A stretch of DNA of 64,000 nt from Ulvibacter algarum. GTDB lineage: Bacteria > Bacteroidota > Bacteroidia > Flavobacteriales > Flavobacteriaceae. Shown piece by piece: positions 56,156 through 62,414 of the stretch. The translations under genes and the position numbers were made by a program. The notes below the pieces were generated by a model. The model made no database searches. It was not told the origin of the DNA and worked only from the letters and a program-made list of their open reading frames with translations. Within the stretch, counting starts at the first letter, position 1. Each line of letters starts with the position of its first letter. The stretch spans positions 186,001 to 250,000 of the forward strand of contig CANLBJ010000001.1 in NCBI GenBank assembly GCA_947488905.1. The letters run 5' to 3'.

Positions 56156-56635
56156 TTAATTAGCCTTCTCTATTGTATAACCCACATCTGTAATACCTAT
56201 TAATCTTCTCACTCCATCTACCTCACCGTTGTTGCGCAGTGCTTGACCTATCTCTAGTTTATACTCGCCATCTTCATTAAACTGCATTTTCTCTTTGAGT
56301 ACTAGTTTGCTCTGCTTAAGATTACCTATACCTTCTCCCAACCACGTGCCATCTGGGCGAGCCATCCTATACTCTAGGGTGTCAATTGCGGTTTTCCCAT
56401 TTGGGTACCTCAACGTTGTTATCAAAAATATGTTACTGTAAGGGTACTCATTTGTATTGCGCAATTGTAAATACACATTATAATCTTGCTCCTTTTTTAA
56501 CTCCGGAAATGTGAAGTCTACCGTCATCTGGCTATCCCAAAATCCAGGCAGATCTTGTGTCTCTCCAGCTACAGAGTCTCCTAAACAAGAAGTTAATAGC
56601 ATCGCAGCACATAACATAGCAATCACTTTACGCAT
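56156..56635 (-). CDS. gldH: Gliding motility lipoprotein GldH
   Basis: 159-residue lipoprotein with signal MRKVIAMLCAAMLLTSC (lipobox Cys at 17). GldH is required for gliding in Flavobacterium johnsoniae. Typical are FWDSQMTVDFTFPELKKEQDYNVYLQLRN, read in parts, YPYSNIFLITTLRYPNGK, DTLEYRMARPDGTWLGEG and a basic YKLEIGQALRNNGEVDGV. An upstream in-frame ATG at 56758 would place the start inside ricT and remove the signal peptide, so ATG 56635, overlapping the ricT stop by 8 nt, is chosen. Confidence 0.93.
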   Translation of the reverse strand: MRKVIAMLCAAMLLTSCLGDSVAGETQDLPGFWDSQMTVDFTFPELKKEQDYNVYLQLRNTNEYPYSNIFLITTLRYPNGKTAIDTLEYRMARPDGTWLGEGIGNLKQSKLVLKEKMQFNEDGEYKLEIGQALRNNGEVDGVRRLIGITDVGYTIEKAN

Positions 56636-57962
56636 CTTTCTTTGGCCCTTGTTTTTGGTTGTTATTAGGTCGTGGTTTGTTGTTATTAGTACGACGTTTT
56701 TTATTGTTATTTCTTGGGTTAGGCTTGTTTCCTGGCGTTGATGCTTTAGGTTTTGCACCTGTTTTTGCTCCAGTCTTTACTTTTGTCCCGGTTGCCGCTC
56801 CCGCTTTTGCCGGCTGTCGCTTTCTATTCTTGTTATTGTTGTTGCGACGCTTTTTGTTGCTTCGTTTAGGCTGGTCAAAACGAGTTAAACTATCTTGCCC
56901 CACCACGTTGCTATAAATCTCTTTTTCTAGATCTATAAATACCTCTTCTTTATATTCTTCTAACGCTCTAACTTTTTCTCCTTTTTTATTGATGGCAATA
57001 ATCTCATTGACTTTACTCACTTTAAGTTCGTGCCAGTTCATCCCATCTTTTAAATAAGAAAACCACATAAGACCTTTAAAGATGTCTGTTTTTTGACAAA
57101 CTGCAGGGCCTTTTTCTGTTTGTAATTTAACGTCTGTTTTAGGAAATTCTTGTAAAGCATCTAGATACGTATCTAGCTCATAGTTAAGACAACATTTAAG
57201 CTTACCACACTGTCCCGCTAACTTTTGCGGATTTAAAGATAACTGCTGGTATCTCGCCGCCGAAGTATTTACAGACCTAAAATCTGTTAACCAAGTTGAA
57301 CAGCAAAGCTCGCGCCCACAAGAACCTATACCTCCTAATCGTGCTGCTTCTTGTCTAAGCCCCACTTGCTTCATCTCTATACGAGAATTAAACGTTCGTG
57401 CTAGTTCTTTAATAAGTTCTCTAAAATCTACACGCTCATCTGCCGTGTAATAGAAAACAACTTTTGATGCATCACCTTGAAACTCAATATCACTTATCTT
57501 CATGCGTAACCCTAAACGGATAGCAATCTCTCTAGATTTTTTCTGAATATCATCTTCGCGATCTCTCGCCGTTTGCCAGATATCTATTTCTTTTTGATTT
57601 GCTTTACGGTAAATGGCAGGAAGAAGCTTTGTGTCTAGTCGCTCCTTTTTCTTTTTCATTTGCACGCGCACCAGTTCTCCTGTGAGCGTTACAATACCTA
57701 CATCGTACCCAGATTCTGCCTCTGTAGCAACAATATCACCTATAGCAAGTGTTAAATTTTCTTTATTGAGATAGAAATGTTTTCTACCATTTTTAAAACG
57801 GACTTCCACTCCGTCAAACGGAGTCATATTTGCAGGAAGCGCCATGTTTGAAAGCCAATCGAATACCGTTAGTTTATTACAGCCATCAGTTCCGCAAGTA
57901 CCATTGTTCTTGCATCCTTTTGGTTGTCCACCGGCACCAGAGGCACAGCTTGTACAGCCCAT
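56628..57962 (-). CDS. ricT: RicT/PSP1-domain regulatory protein
   Basis: 444-residue protein of the PSP1 family (YaaT/RicT). The N-terminus is Cys-rich (MGCTSCASGAGG). The core has GYDVGIVTLTGELVRVQMK, FYYTADERVDFRELIKELA, and the conserved GGIGSCGRELCCSTW and QKLAGQCGKLKCCLNYEL with multiple Cys that can bind an Fe-S cluster. After residue 365 the tail is an Asn-, Lys-, Arg- and Pro-rich, probably disordered region. In B. subtilis RicT acts with RicA and RicF on RNase Y; the role in Bacteroidota is less clear. It precedes gldH, as in other flavobacteria. Confidence 0.92.
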   Translation of the reverse strand: MGCTSCASGAGGQPKGCKNNGTCGTDGCNKLTVFDWLSNMALPANMTPFDGVEVRFKNGRKHFYLNKENLTLAIGDIVATEAESGYDVGIVTLTGELVRVQMKKKKERLDTKLLPAIYRKANQKEIDIWQTARDREDDIQKKSREIAIRLGLRMKISDIEFQGDASKVVFYYTADERVDFRELIKELARTFNSRIEMKQVGLRQEAARLGGIGSCGRELCCSTWLTDFRSVNTSAARYQQLSLNPQKLAGQCGKLKCCLNYELDTYLDALQEFPKTDVKLQTEKGPAVCQKTDIFKGLMWFSYLKDGMNWHELKVSKVNEIIAINKKGEKVRALEEYKEEVFIDLEKEIYSNVVGQDSLTRFDQPKRSNKKRRNNNNKNRKRQPAKAGAATGTKVKTGAKTGAKPKASTPGNKPNPRNNNKKRRTNNNKPRPNNNQKQGPKKDA

Positions 57963-58042: not shown

Positions 58043-58194
58043 GGTTTTTGAGATAACGAAAGAAGGGAGTTTTTAATTGTACTTCGGAAATTTTAAAGGG
58101 GGTTTTAATGGTGCTGGGAATTGGGGAGATTTAGGTGTGGGTTTTGAGTTGTGGGGGATTAAAAAAGCCCTTTAAAAAAAATTGAAAGGGCTTT
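58043..58194. repeat. Module-end repeat, copy 2 (with terminator)
   Basis: About 150 bp nearly identical to 60644-60798, in the same orientation; only a few positions differ over the first ~130 bp. It includes AACGAAAGAAGG, AATGGTGCTGGGAATTGGGG and GAGTTGTGGGGGATTAAAAA. The end is a hairpin AAAGCCCTTT/AAAGGGCTTT (58164-58194) whose minus-strand T run makes it the terminator of the two-gene cassette upstream. It also contains a TTTCCGAAG motif (58082-58090). Confidence 0.85.
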
Positions 58195-58269
58195 AGGTTA
58201 TTTTAATTTTTGTTTATTAATTTGCTCTGTTCACTCAGTGTGGCACTAGTTACAAACTAGCAAGAGATG

Positions 58270-58725
58270 TTATTTTTTCACCCCTTCATTAAGCCACTTT
58301 ACTGGATAAATCACAAAACATTCCTCATTAATTATTTCAACTAAATAGGTTTTAAACATACCATTTTTGTCAAAAGGAGGCTGAGTTTTACCATAATATT
58401 CTATCAATCCTTGTTTGTTTGTTTTACGCCAAGAGTTAACGATAATATCGATGTCTTTCATCTCATTAAATGAATAATCCCCTAGTCTTCTAATATTCAA
58501 TGTGTCTGAAATACTATTTTTCTCGAAAAACAAAACAGCACTACCACACAAATTAAATTGAATCTCAGTTTTCTTTTCCCATTTAGTTTTAATCTTATGC
58601 GGGCAATCATTAATCGAATTATTGTAGTTAAAATAAAGAACTTCTTTATTTGCATATTGACTATGGGAGCTAAAAAACGAAAATAGAAAGATTAAAAAGG
58701 TTACTTTTTTAATTAAATGGTTCAT
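58270..58725 (-). CDS. Secreted protein of unknown function, possible partner/immunity protein
   Basis: 151-residue protein with a signal peptide (MNHLIKKVTFLIFLFSFFSSHSQ). The mature part has KTKWEKKTEIQFNLCGSAVLFFEKN, read in parts, and YGKTQPPFDKNGMFKTYLVEI. No family is recognised. The start overlaps the 3' end of the larger lipoprotein gene by 17 nt in another frame, so translation is coupled. This order (large protein with peptidase-like C-terminus, then a small protein) resembles toxin-immunity pairs, but that is inference only. A terminator follows. Confidence 0.7.
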   Translation of the reverse strand: MNHLIKKVTFLIFLFSFFSSHSQYANKEVLYFNYNNSINDCPHKIKTKWEKKTEIQFNLCGSAVLFFEKNSISDTLNIRRLGDYSFNEMKDIDIIVNSWRKTNKQGLIEYYGKTQPPFDKNGMFKTYLVEIINEECFVIYPVKWLNEGVKK

Positions 58726-60466
58726 TATCTATAGCATTTTGAATTATTGTTTCAATGTTTTGTTGTTCAGTTGCTGTCAATAAGTCCCAAGCTGTAGTTT
58801 CCTTTAAACCTATCCAAGAAAGTGCTTCATAAAATGCTTGAGAGTGATTGCCATCATCATAATCACTTAAAGCACCCGCCATAGTTGTTATATAATGTTG
58901 TTCCATCTGCTCATGATCTGCACTCGTTGGATTTGAATTGTTTACCTCATATCTTATAAAATAGTCCCAAACACCTGGAAATTCATTCATTAAATTAATT
59001 AAGAAATTCCCCCAATCTTCATCGCTTAAATTATTAAAGTTTACATTCGGATTTCCTGCGACACTCATTAATTTTCGAAACATTTCTGCGTGAACAGTTT
59101 CATGCATAAGCCCTACTGCCAATACAATTTTCGGAAAATTGTGTGTAGAATTATCCAAATTATTGTCTTTGTTGAAAACAATGTTAATTAGATAATTATT
59201 AGGGGGTATTGTTATTGCTAAAGCATCCCAATTATCACTTGTTTGATTAGACTGAAAATTCTCATCCGCACTAAACCTTAAATTAGCAACAGAGCCATCC
59301 GGTATAAAATTTGAAATATATTGTCCAATTGTATTGTTCCCTGATTTAAATTTATTAAACACATATGATAACCGAGGGTCTGACTGAAATGTATTATCAA
59401 TAATTATTTGCTCATCAAAATCAATATCGACACAATTATTAGAATTATTTTCATCATAATTATTAGCTAAATAGTTCGCCAAAGGAGTAGCCTCATTTTG
59501 ATTAGCAAAAGCCCAAGTATGTATAGCAGCTTGTTCTGTGGAGTTTATAGTCCCGCACATATAAGGCGTAAAAAACACAGAAAAATCTTCTACACAATCC
59601 TCAGAGTCTGTATCGCCATCTGGCAGAAAATCATTGCATAATTCTAAGACTACTGTTTGTGTTGTACCACCAAAATTGCCACCACCTCCACCACCGCTTC
59701 CGCCGCTAGTTCCGTTGCCGTCATTATTATTGTCACCGTTATTACCACCACCTGGACCACCACCTTCACCAGATTGAGGACACCAAACAATACTATATAT
59801 TGTTGGACCAGCATAGCCTCCATAATCATCACAAGGACACTCATCACCACCACATTCTATCCAAGTGGGTATCGCTGAAAATAGACAGCTTCCACTTGAA
59901 GTTCTATTATCTAAAGTAACACCACTAAATAAGTCATCTAATGTTAAAACTGTATTATCAAACTTATTAATGGCACCCTTAAAATCTTTTGACTTGTCAA
60001 ATAGCCAACTTAACTCTGGGTTGTATTGTAAAACACTAGAACTTACTTCTCCTGTAATAAGGTTTTGTTCAAATATAAAGTTGTAGAAAATACTCGCCTT
60101 TTCTTCAGAGTTGTTGTTTATAACTTTTAATGTATAATAATTTATAGAGTCTGTCTCTATTAAATGTATGATACTCGTGTCTATGTATGCACCTATAAGA
60201 TCTGCACCCCTACCCTCAAATTGAATTGTTCTGTTTTTATCCAAATGTTTACTGTTCGCAATAAAAGTTGAGCTTGAGCCAATGTCCTCAAAAAACTCGT
60301 CAAAATCTATAAATCCTTGCTTTGTCTCTAAATGGGTTTCGTGAGCATCTTGTTCTAAGACAATCTCATCTTCTTGACAGCTAACTATCATTAACATAGA
60401 TAGTGCAAAGCAAATTGCACTTGCTTTTTTTAGATATTTAAAAAATAAATGGGGGGGGTATTGCAA
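58709..60466 (-). CDS. Putative lipoprotein with C-terminal HExxH metallopeptidase-like domain; possibly phase-variable
   Basis: 585 residues from a TTG start. A lipoprotein signal ends at Cys30 (ALSMLMIVSC). Residues 31-190 are unrecognised, then a Cys-rich patch (CGGDECPCDD, 205-213), a Gly/Asn-rich linker (about 233-266) and a C-terminal domain with HETVH at 455-459 and a possible further ligand region DHEQMEQHY (518-526). The linker followed by a peptidase-like end suggests a polymorphic toxin, but no family is recognised. The only ATG (60474) is out of frame because of a run of eight C residues at 60458-60451; nine or six would join it to this frame (MKICNTPPHLFFKYL with nine). As read, TTG 60466 is the only start that keeps the signal peptide. 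Confidence 0.75.
   Translation of the reverse strand: MQYPPHLFFKYLKKASAICFALSMLMIVSCQEDEIVLEQDAHETHLETKQGFIDFDEFFEDIGSSSTFIANSKHLDKNRTIQFEGRGADLIGAYIDTSIIHLIETDSINYYTLKVINNNSEEKASIFYNFIFEQNLITGEVSSSVLQYNPELSWLFDKSKDFKGAINKFDNTVLTLDDLFSGVTLDNRTSSGSCLFSAIPTWIECGGDECPCDDYGGYAGPTIYSIVWCPQSGEGGGPGGGNNGDNNNDGNGTSGGSGGGGGGNFGGTTQTVVLELCNDFLPDGDTDSEDCVEDFSVFFTPYMCGTINSTEQAAIHTWAFANQNEATPLANYLANNYDENNSNNCVDIDFDEQIIIDNTFQSDPRLSYVFNKFKSGNNTIGQYISNFIPDGSVANLRFSADENFQSNQTSDNWDALAITIPPNNYLINIVFNKDNNLDNSTHNFPKIVLAVGLMHETVHAEMFRKLMSVAGNPNVNFNNLSDEDWGNFLINLMNEFPGVWDYFIRYEVNNSNPTSADHEQMEQHYITTMAGALSDYDDGNHSQAFYEALSWIGLKETTAWDLLTATEQQNIETIIQNAIDNEPFN
60451..60458 (-). repeat. Homopolymeric C8 tract in the start region of the lipoprotein gene
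   Basis: Eight G on the plus strand, C8 on the coding strand, between the out-of-frame ATG 60474 and the signal peptide. A length of 9 (or 6) puts ATG in frame; 8 gives a 14-codon peptide ending at TAA 60432-60430. Confidence 0.8.
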
Positions 60467-60506
60467 ATTTTCATACTATAAATTTAAATTATTATTTAGA
60501 TAGCCG

Positions 60507-60514
60507 CAAACCTA
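60507..60514 (-). promoter_or_regulatory. -7 promoter element of the lipoprotein cassette
   Basis: Minus strand TAGGTTTG, matching TAnnTTTG, 33 nt before ATG 60474. It is inside a box AAACCTAAACTCTTTTT (plus strand, 60508 onward) that recurs upstream of the gene at 60830-61303, where the element reads TAGGTTTA. Confidence 0.5.
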
Positions 60515-60567
60515 AACTCTTTTTATTTGTTGGGCATCGGTATAAACACCTAGTTTGAAAATTAACC

Positions 60568-60640
60568 CTACTTCTTAAACTTCAACTTCTCACTTCGCCC
60601 TTTCTTAAAAATCTTGTTGCTGTTATGTGTGCCAGTACTT
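60568..60640 (-). pseudogene. Duplicated 3' end of trhO
   Basis: About 73 bp encoding GTHNSNKIFKKGRSEKLKF plus KK and a TAG stop, almost the same peptide as the end of the intact trhO at 61383, but with about a dozen nucleotide differences, many of them silent or at the upstream edge, and TAG in place of TAA. It has no start or upstream coding part. It directly abuts the module-end repeat (60644), so it is a border of the second module rather than a decayed gene. Confidence 0.85.
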
Positions 60641-60643
60641 AGG

Positions 60644-60798
60644 GGTTTTTGAGATAACGAAAGAAGGCAATACTTAATTGTACTTCAGAAATTTTAAAGG
60701 GGGTTTTAATGGTGCTGGGAATTGGGGAGATTTTGTTGTGGGTTTTGAGTTGTGGGGGATTAAAAAAGCCCTTTCAAAATTGGCTTTTGAAAGGGCTT
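60644..60798. repeat. Module-end repeat, copy 1 (with terminator)
   Basis: Near-identical partner of 58043-58194. It ends in a longer hairpin, AAAGCCCTTTCAAAA/TTTTGAAAGGGCTT (60764-60798), with a T run on the minus strand, which serves as terminator for the gene at 60830-61303. One base of its TTTCCGAAG motif is changed (TTTCTGAAG). Confidence 0.85.
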
Positions 60799-60829
60799 AG
60801 CTATAAATTAATTTTCTGAAATTTTAAAA

Positions 60830-61303
60830 TCACAACCCATGTAAAAAAGAAGGATCTTCTATTTTTCTCGCAATGTAATAACCCTCAAAAAAGGATGTTT
60901 CATCAATTAAATATATATTCTCAAAGCTTTTAATGACCGTTAACAAATTCTTATAGTCTTTTGCAAGTATCATCTCATTATAGTTTATCACATTGAGCAT
61001 TGAATTTTTATCAATTAATATAGGGTTATTGTTTCCATTTATATTTTGATAAATGAAATCAAATGAAGTTCTATTATATGCTCTTGTTTCTGGAGTTTTT
61101 TTGAGTCTACCATCTTCTTTTGAAAACGAGATTTTATTAATTTTTGGACTTAAAGTAATATAATATTGATCATGTTGAATAGTGTCTGACTTGTAAGCCA
61201 TATGCTTGACATCAGATGTTTTCTTAATCAAAATATAGATATTCTCTTGTGAAAAACAAGAAACTCCGTTTAATAAGACCAATAATATAATGACAATTTT
61301 CAT
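60830..61303 (-). CDS. Secreted protein of unknown function in the first module
   Basis: 157-residue protein with a signal peptide (MKIVIILLVLLNGVSCFSQ; the Cys might also be lipidated). The mature part contains YITLSPKINKISFSKEDGRL, RTSFDFIYQNINGNNNPILID and a C-terminal SFFEGYYIARKIEDPSF. No family is recognised. Size and export signal are like those of the small gene at 58270, but I see no clear sequence similarity. It sits between the intact trhO 3' end and the first module-end repeat. An orphan immunity-type protein is one possibility. Confidence 0.7.
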   Translation of the reverse strand: MKIVIILLVLLNGVSCFSQENIYILIKKTSDVKHMAYKSDTIQHDQYYITLSPKINKISFSKEDGRLKKTPETRAYNRTSFDFIYQNINGNNNPILIDKNSMLNVINYNEMILAKDYKNLLTVIKSFENIYLIDETSFFEGYYIARKIEDPSFLHGL

Positions 61304-61382
61304 TCTTTTAATTTAATTGTTTTTACAAGTGGGTAAACCTAAACTCTTTTTAACAATTAATACTACTTAAAAACACGAAATC

Positions 61383-62414
61383 TTACTTCTTAAACTTCAA
61401 CTTCTCACTCCTACCTTTCTTAAAAATCTTGTTGCTATTATGTGTTCCTGCACGTAAGGCTTTTTGCTCTTCATATGGAAGCGCTACAATCTCTTTACAC
61501 TCTGTAGAGCAACAATTATCCATTGCTTTTTTACAGTCTTCACATTGTATAAAAAGTAAGTGGCAGCCTTCATTATCACAGTTAGTATGGTCATCGCAAG
61601 GCGCACCGCATTGGTGACATTGCGAGATAACATCTTCTGTAATACGCTCACTACGGCGATGGTCAAAAACAAAGTTTTTACCTATAAATTTATTTTCAAG
61701 CCCTTCACTTTCTACTTGGCGCGTGTACTCGATAATCCCGCCCTCTAGCTGAAACACATTTTTAAACCCTTTGTGTTTGTAATAAGCGCTGGCTTTTTCG
61801 CAACGGATACCTCCCGTGCAATACATCACTAGTTTTTTATCTTCTTTGTGGTCTTTTAAATCTGCCTCAATAATATCTAAAGAATCCCTAAAGGTATCAA
61901 CGTCTGGTGTTACGGCATTTTTAAAATGGCCTATCTCACTTTCATAGTGATTGCGCATATCTACGAGCACCGTATTTGGGTCTTCTATTAACTCATTAAA
62001 AGCAGCAGCATCTACGTGTACGCCTTTGTTGCGCACATCAAAGGTGTCATCATTTAAACCATCTGCGACTATCTTGTTGCGCACTTTTACTTTTAGCTTT
62101 AAAAAAGATTTTAGGTCTTGCTCCACAGCAATATTTAATCGCACATTTTCTAAAAAGTAAATGCCGTCAAGAAACGTTTTAAAATCTTCAAACCGTTTTG
62201 CGGGTAGCGAAAGTTGGGCGTTAATCCCTTCGTGAGCCACATATATACGGCCTAGCACTTCGAGGTCATCCCAAGCTACAAATAAATGGTTTCTGAAAAG
62301 TTCTGGATTGCCAATTTTGGCATATTGATAAAAAGAAAGCGTTAAACGGTCTTCTCCCGCTTGTTCTAAAAGTGTTGCTCTCTCTATCGCGCTTAATGTA
62401 TTGTACAGTTGCAT
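61383..62414 (-). CDS. trhO: tRNA uridine(34) hydroxylase, rhodanese family
   Basis: 343-residue enzyme (YceA/TrhO) that uses oxygen to make 5-hydroxyuridine at position 34 of tRNAs. N-terminal acylphosphatase-like domain (LEVLGRIYVAHEGINAQLSLP, read in parts), central rhodanese domain with the active-site loop MYCTGGIRCEKASAYY near residue 197, and a C-terminal Cys-rich zinc-like region (CHQCGAPCDDHTNCDNEGCHLLF in parts). The last 20 or so codons are duplicated at 60568-60640. It has its own -7 element and is the left border of the accessory modules. Confidence 0.95.
   Translation of the reverse strand: MQLYNTLSAIERATLLEQAGEDRLTLSFYQYAKIGNPELFRNHLFVAWDDLEVLGRIYVAHEGINAQLSLPAKRFEDFKTFLDGIYFLENVRLNIAVEQDLKSFLKLKVKVRNKIVADGLNDDTFDVRNKGVHVDAAAFNELIEDPNTVLVDMRNHYESEIGHFKNAVTPDVDTFRDSLDIIEADLKDHKEDKKLVMYCTGGIRCEKASAYYKHKGFKNVFQLEGGIIEYTRQVESEGLENKFIGKNFVFDHRRSERITEDVISQCHQCGAPCDDHTNCDNEGCHLLFIQCEDCKKAMDNCCSTECKEIVALPYEEQKALRAGTHNSNKIFKKGRSEKLKFKK

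What the first reader, a model, noticed from the sequence alone, without database searches (positions are those of the whole stretch)
60430..60474. Possible phase-variable start of a surface lipoprotein gene through a C8 tract
The gene at 58709-60466 has a proper lipoprotein signal but in this sequence no ATG in frame. An ATG at 60474 lies 13 nt before a run of eight C; with C8 it reads into a stop after 14 codons, with C9 (or C6) it joins the lipoprotein frame as MKICNTPPHLFFKYL. A -7 element (60507-60514) is correctly placed 33 nt before this ATG. Slipped-strand changes in such tracts switch surface-protein genes in several bacteria. As read, the gene would be OFF or made weakly from TTG 60466. 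A one-base homopolymer error in the assembly is the main alternative.
Basis: partly seen in the sequence, partly recalled or inferred. Interest (0 to 1): 0.75.

Follow-up and report, generated by a model that had tools for sequence, protein, structure and literature searches.

The report
Likely repeat-switched start of a surface lipoprotein
A run of eight C's sits between the start codon and the export signal of a bacterial surface-protein gene, and relatives of this gene carry unrelated repeats at the same spot, so these genes are probably flipped on and off by repeat slippage, although the flipping itself has not been seen.

Summary
Observation confirmed. The C8 (60451-60458, minus strand) is the genome's only C/G run of 8 or more. 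The lipoprotein frame has no ATG before its signal peptide; the ATG at 60474 reaches a stop after 14 codons. Comparison favours phase variation: six relatives with the same HExxH domain lack an in-frame ATG and carry other frame-changing repeats there (7-, 5-, 4-base units, C7). Both features together: 5 of 43 family members, 0 of 96 other lipoproteins. Both wrong frames occur. Three of 19 other C8+ tracts in ten same-genus genomes lie just after an ATG and before an out-of-register signal peptide. The gene heads a two-gene cassette: 77 of 80 relatives have a small ORF next door, 74 with a signal-like N-terminus. It was gained between two genes that are neighbours in 8 of 8 same-genus genomes holding both. 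Best reading: a repeat-switched, zincin-like surface effector with a partner protein. Switching, toxicity and tract heterogeneity are untested; assembly error, TTG start and decay stay open, and many relatives are broken mid-gene.

The parts
60451..60458 (-). C8 tract between the ATG and the signal peptide
60472..60474 (-). ATG, out of frame with the lipoprotein as assembled; A at -3
   Evidence: A-3 as a positive determinant and AUG depletion near starts in F. johnsoniae: PMC6847099, passages
60464..60466 (-). TTG, the only ATG/GTG/TTG in the lipoprotein frame before the signal peptide
60507..60514 (-). TAGGTTTG, -7-like promoter box (weak evidence)
58709..60466 (-). lipoprotein ORF as read from TTG: signal peptide with lipobox Cys at 60377-60379, N-terminal domain, Gly-rich linker, C-terminal HExxH domain
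59090..59104 (-). HETVH (HExxH) motif; both His and the Glu are invariant in the 40 aligned sequences, window included
58270..58725 (-). partner gene, 151 aa with signal-like N-terminus, overlapping the lipoprotein ORF by 17 nt
60830..61303 (-). upstream 157-aa protein with signal-like N-terminus; similarity to the partner family too weak to claim
58064..61383 (.). approximate extent of DNA present here and absent between the same two flanking genes in G005

Best explanation
The C8 tract is a translational contingency repeat. Slipped-strand changes of its length move the ATG at 60474 in and out of register with a surface lipoprotein that carries a zincin-like HExxH domain, and this assembly caught an off-register state. 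The lipoprotein is the first gene of a gained two-gene cassette; the second gene makes a small, probably secreted partner, most likely an immunity protein or inhibitor, with its own ATG. Shown: sequence, frames, recurrence of unrelated repeats at this position in relatives, low dN/dS, partner conservation, empty site. Inferred: slippage in living cells, surface location, enzyme activity, effector role, role of the partner.
For: (1) No in-frame ATG together with a repeat: 5 of 43 family members with a detected lipobox, 0 of 96 other lipoproteins in the same contigs, p=0.0024. L092 is a sixth case, left out by the script because its ORF has no stop on the contig. (2) Repeat units differ: AAACTCC (L053), ACAAA (L061, Bizionia echini), CAAA type (L071, L092), ACCAAAC (L085), C7 (L131, Algoriphagus locisalis), C8 here. 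(3) Both wrong frames occur, 4 and 3 of 7 (for L092 counted from the ATG next to the repeat), so this is not one fixed frameshift signal. (4) Ten same-genus genomes hold 19 other C8+ tracts; 3 lie 13-19 nt after an ATG and before an out-of-register signal peptide, p=0.002 by position alone under the gene number assumed. (5) Of 64 ATGAA..C8+ sites read (63 from listed matches in 397 family genomes, plus L043 from the genus search), 12 are followed by a signal-like stretch and an ORF of at least 100 aa that starts there: 2 in frame, 7 and 3 in the two other frames (filter set after seeing the table). (6) dN/dS of an off-off pair is like that of an ordinary pair: L061-L071 0.29/1.28, L055-L057 0.30/1.38. 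(7) Small ORF next door in 77 of 80 loci; with signal-like N-terminus 74 of 80 against 16 of 96 controls.
Against: No second tract length at this locus was available. None of the seven HExxH members with a start repeat is in frame (0 of 7; p=0.059 if phases were random), which decay would also predict; of the two in-frame poly-C cases one (L193) has another in-frame ATG after the tract and the other (L163) is short. Most family members with a detected lipobox (37 of 43) have an ordinary ATG and no repeat. Many members are broken elsewhere: of 13 printed, I judge about 10 to have a stop or frame break between the N-terminal half and the C-terminal domain. The homologue in Aequorivita viscosa (L064), closest over both halves among those compared, is broken and has no C tract. 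The frame behind the L037 tract is itself open for only 43 codons. A run of 8 is short for fast slippage (general knowledge). The family-wide pattern count, 97 against 64 for the reversed control, is a modest excess, and without one genome (G407) it is 72 against 58 (my sums).
Confidence: 0.62

Rival explanations
1. One-base assembly or sequencing error in the C8; the gene is in fact in register and ordinary.
For: A homopolymer is the likeliest place for a one-base error, and the rest of the ORF is intact over 585 codons.
Against: Relatives show the same kind of defect with 4-, 5- and 7-base units, which single-base errors do not readily explain. It could still be true for this one genome; no reads were available.
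Confidence: 0.1
2. Translation starts at TTG 60466, so the gene is on at a low constant level and the C tract is incidental.
For: The TTG frame is open, and the distance from TTG to the KYLK stretch resembles the distance from ATG to YLK in the Aequorivita homologue (by eye).
Against: Only 3 of 96 control lipoproteins and 1 of 43 family members lack both an in-frame ATG and a repeat. An AUG 8 nt upstream is the sort of competitor that is depleted near F. johnsoniae starts (PMC6847099, passages).
Confidence: 0.1
3. The gene is a recently started pseudogene; the family decays often and the repeat is incidental.
For: Frequent internal breaks in relatives, the broken homologue L064, and no in-frame case among seven start-repeat members.
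Against: Repeats of unrelated units recur at this position and, with loss of the in-frame ATG, in none of 96 control lipoproteins; dN/dS stays low in off-off pairs (well-aligned stretches only); the window ORF has no other lesion.
Confidence: 0.13
4. Programmed ribosomal or transcriptional slippage on the C tract makes the protein at a set ratio without DNA change.
For: A run of eight C's is a possible slip site (general knowledge).
Against: The required shift differs between relatives, and other members use repeats that are not classical slip sites.
Confidence: 0.05

Closest known systems
Simple-sequence-repeat phase-variable (contingency) genes of Neisseria, Haemophilus, Helicobacter, Campylobacter (PMC11868660, PMC5320596, PMC6321876, PMC2823697: search listings and abstract starts only)
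   Same: Frame-changing repeat near the 5' end of a surface or secreted protein gene; homologues with different tract lengths and different frames.
   Different: Here in Flavobacteriaceae and one Algoriphagus genome, at a lipoprotein signal peptide, with several unrelated repeat units in one protein family; switching itself not shown.
Phase-variable S-layer lipoproteins and capsules of Bacteroides thetaiotaomicron (PMC12548429, abstract start seen)
   Same: Phase-variable surface lipoproteins in the same phylum.
   Different: That DNA inversion drives those switches is recalled; here the candidate is a slippage tract inside the coding frame.
Polymorphic toxins with zincin domains, Tox-MPTase1-5 (PMC3482391, passages seen)
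   Same: HExxH domain; relatives that share the N-terminal half but have other C-terminal halves; adjacent small gene.
   Different: Lipobox anchoring instead of the RHS-type carriers named there; no family-model match for the window protein; toxicity untested; 'phase variation' does not occur in the held text of that paper.

Membership tests
SSR-mediated translational phase-variable gene | Repeat tract whose unit is not a multiple of three, between start codon and body of the gene | tested here: met
SSR-mediated translational phase-variable gene | Different tract lengths or repeats and different frames among homologues | tested here: met
   for six relatives; most relatives have no start repeat; reprolysin-like proteases
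SSR-mediated translational phase-variable gene | Tract length varies at this very locus within the species or culture | not testable with these tools
   no raw reads or known conspecific genome; none of ten same-genus genomes, several incomplete, gave a full-length homologue
SSR-mediated translational phase-variable gene | Expression switches on and off | not testable with these tools
   needs culture work
SSR-mediated translational phase-variable gene | Surface or secreted product | tested here: met
   lipobox Cys conserved in 90% or more of 30 aligned sequences; by sequence only
Zincin metallopeptidases | HExxH motif invariant in relatives | tested here: met
Zincin metallopeptidases | Zincin fold | tested here: inconclusive
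Zincin metallopeptidases | Match to a curated family model | tested here: not met
   no Pfam or NCBIfam hit for the window protein at E 0.1; three relatives touch SprT-like below its cutoff
Polymorphic toxin (effector-immunity) systems | Shared N-terminal part with exchangeable C-terminal domains | tested here: inconclusive
   L018, L020, L021, L028 match the N-terminal half only; L005 (= L053) matches the C-terminal domain only
Polymorphic toxin (effector-immunity) systems | Cognate immunity gene next door | tested here: inconclusive
   small ORF with signal-like N-terminus in 74 of 80 loci against 16 of 96 controls; immunity function untested
Polymorphic toxin (effector-immunity) systems | Toxicity and delivery to neighbours | not testable with these tools
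   needs bench work

The most novel reading that the evidence does not exclude
Flavobacteria keep antagonistic surface effector cassettes under bet-hedging control: unrelated repeats have arisen again and again between the ATG and the signal peptide, so that a few cells display the effector while most do not, and the partner gene, with its own ATG, keeps silent cells protected. The same start-repeat device is used for secreted reprolysin-like metalloproteases in the same clade.
Probability: 0.33. Interest if true: 0.82.

Novelty: new variant of a known kind. Interest (0 to 1): 0.6.

Why it matters
Phase variation in this phylum is best known as DNA inversion in gut Bacteroides (recalled, in line with abstract starts seen). 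If true, this adds slippage-based switching in Flavobacteriaceae, tied to secreted proteases and to a conserved effector-like lipoprotein cassette. It could be tested with reads for the named strains, where these have been deposited. It also warns that automatic annotation may drop or mis-start such genes, because the assembled state of those found here is mostly off register.

Tried and rejected
A single programmed frameshift was considered and set aside because both wrong frames occur. The -7 box as strong evidence was set aside because the motif is no commoner than chance. C8 rarity as evidence in itself was set aside: 32, 3, 1 runs of 6, 7, 8 is a smooth decline. (CAAA)5+ tracts: 13 of 397 genomes have them; of the 13 tracts printed, one per genome, 2 sit between an ATG and an out-of-register lipoprotein signal (L136, which is the family member L010/L071, and L137, another lipoprotein); the rest lie upstream of an ordinary ATG or in no recognised gene of this kind; further tracts in G301 and G029 were not read. 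The upstream gene 60830-61303 as an orphan partner: BLAST found nothing significant, and the profile score of 20 bits carries 16 bits of composition bias, so not claimed. PDB sequence search with the C-terminal profile: nothing significant. Foldseek: no match at E 0.001 for the full model or the domain. First genome-contig scan with the whole protein: no relatives. One search read minus-strand loci in the wrong orientation; redone. Literature: ten searches of open-licence PMC; among the rows listed, often a small part of the papers matched (for example 12 of 254), I saw no paper on slippage phase variation in Flavobacteriaceae. I saw passages of PMC6847099, PMC3482391 and PMC6676235 (there 'phase variation' occurs only in a reference title about Bacillus); all other papers as listings and abstract starts.

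Full report
What is there. On the minus strand an ATG (60474) is followed, 16 nt from its A, by eight C's (60458-60451) and then by a lipoprotein signal peptide in another frame. Read from the ATG, translation stops after 14 codons. In the lipoprotein frame the ORF is open for 585 codons from TTG 60466, with no ATG before the signal peptide. The C8 is the only C/G run of 8 or more in the genome; runs of 6, 7 and 8 number 32, 3 and 1 by my tally, so its presence alone is not remarkable, but its position is.

A two-gene cassette. The relatives with the HExxH domain are 80 loci (99 were found and the best 80 kept). In 77 of them an ORF of 80-260 aa starts within 120 nt of the stop, and 74 of these have a signal-like N-terminus. 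For other lipoproteins in the same contigs the latter figure is 16 of 96, or 6 of 20 among those of 400 aa or more (p = 4e-26 and 2e-8). Of 77 partner proteins compared (76 of at most 200 aa from these loci, plus the window's), 65 fall into one BLAST cluster, the window's included. In the window the partner is 58270-58725, overlapping by 17 nt. The genes on either side (a PSP1-domain gene, 56628-57962, and a UPF0176/rhodanese gene, 61383-62414; the names ricT and trhO are recalled) were both found nearly full-length in 8 of 10 same-genus genomes, and in 8 of 8 they are neighbours, 123 to 336 nt apart by the match coordinates; G001 and G009 (77% and 59% complete) gave neither at full length. 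The nearest (G005, both flanking proteins 93% identical) aligns with the window up to about 58063 and again from about 61384, so some 3.3 kb was gained here or lost there; gain is the simpler reading with 8 empty relatives.

Repeats at the start recur in the family. Six further members with the HExxH domain lack an in-frame ATG and carry a frame-changing repeat between an out-of-frame ATG and the signal peptide: L053 (7-base unit), L061 (5), L071 and L092 (4), L085 (7), L131 (C7). In a test with fixed thresholds, of 43 members with a detected lipobox 5 show both features, 37 have an ATG and no repeat, and 1 has no ATG and no repeat; of 96 other lipoproteins none shows both, 89 have an ATG and no repeat, 4 have an ATG and a repeat, and 3 have no ATG and no repeat (p = 0.0024). 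The other 37 of the 80 loci were left out because no bounded ORF with a lipobox was found in the matched frame: contig ends, broken genes, or detection limits. Among them are L092 (no stop on the contig) and L124 (its halves lie in different frames, with a short CAAA repeat after the ATG).

The device is wider than this family. In ten same-genus genomes all 19 C8+ tracts were read: three (L036 C11, L037 C8, L043 C8) lie 13-19 nt after an ATG and before an out-of-register signal peptide (in L037 that frame is open for only 43 codons), and a fourth (L040) lies 1 nt before an ATG; the other 15 have neither arrangement. Across 397 family genomes the pattern ATGAA..C8+ occurs 97 times against 64 for the reversed control by my sums, 72 against 58 without G407, a modest excess. 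Of 64 sites read, 12 have a signal-like stretch and an ORF of at least 100 aa starting there, 2 in frame and 10 not (filter chosen after seeing the table). Three of the proteins, L036, L043 and L188, hit reprolysin-like metallopeptidase models, one above its cutoff (L036, Reprolysin_3) and the others below; only L036 has a T9SS sorting-domain hit; L202 has PARCEL-type repeats; L207 itself has no hit. Homologues of L207 (21 matches in 13 of 397 genomes) include starts with C10, C9 and C11 (L225, L228, L229, the same loci as L207, L188, L206), G9 (L240), (TC)20 (L231), (CA)8 (L239) and (CT)6 (L226, in frame), while many others have ordinary starts. L231 is from the window's own genus.

Why phase variation is preferred. 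The repeats are of unrelated units but share the position. The frame after the repeat falls in either wrong frame (4 and 3 of 7 in the HExxH family; 7 and 3 of 10 in the poly-C set), which a fixed frameshift signal does not predict. An off-off pair has low dN/dS like an ordinary pair, although only well-aligned stretches were used and dS is near saturation. In F. johnsoniae, A at -3 favours initiation and AUG is depleted near true starts (PMC6847099, passages), which makes the ATG a more natural start than the TTG 8 nt behind it.

What speaks against. No in-frame case was seen among the seven HExxH members (p = 0.059 if phases were random). Of the two in-frame poly-C cases, L193 has another in-frame ATG after the tract and L163 is short. 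Many relatives have breaks in mid-gene: about 10 of the 13 printed by my reading. The Aequorivita viscosa homologue (L064) is broken and has no C tract. Cassettes of this kind clearly decay, so the window gene may be an early casualty. Tract length in the living culture is unknown.

Verdict. A real and well-placed contingency-type tract at the start of a surface effector-like lipoprotein with a partner gene; switching likely but unproven. The class of mechanism is known; its use in this clade, the association with this cassette and the recurrence of different repeats were not seen in the listings of the searches made.

Noticed in passing
L225, L228, L229, L231, L239, L240, L226 (start regions): Homologues of a reprolysin-like secreted protein group carry C9-C11, G9, (TC)20, (CA)8 or (CT)6 at or near the start of the gene; L226 is in frame, the others off register.
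   Followed up: partly
G407 and G248 (same genus, g235): 25 and 9 ATGAA..C8+ matches against 6 and 4 in the reversed control; this genus may have many poly-C switched genes. Fifteen loci from these two genomes were read (L166, L167, L193-L205).
   Followed up: partly
L137:260-332: (CAAA)17 between an ATG and the signal peptide of a different lipoprotein, off register.
   Followed up: no
L040:2054-2063: C8 one base before the ATG of a 679-aa protein with a signal-like N-terminus in the window's genus: possible start-spacing switch.
   Followed up: no
L028 start region: 8-base repeat (ATCGAAAC)n before the signal peptide of a relative with another C-terminal half; not in the 80-locus counts.
   Followed up: partly
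L064:8750-9420: Aequorivita viscosa homologue: 7-base (TTGGTTG) repeats upstream of a broken gene, with a second HExxH-domain gene downstream.
   Followed up: partly
window 60830-61303: Small protein with a signal-like N-terminus at the upstream end of the gained DNA, possibly an orphan partner; similarity too weak to claim.
   Followed up: partly
L029 start region: G9 just upstream of the signal-peptide ATG of a distant HExxH relative.
   Followed up: no
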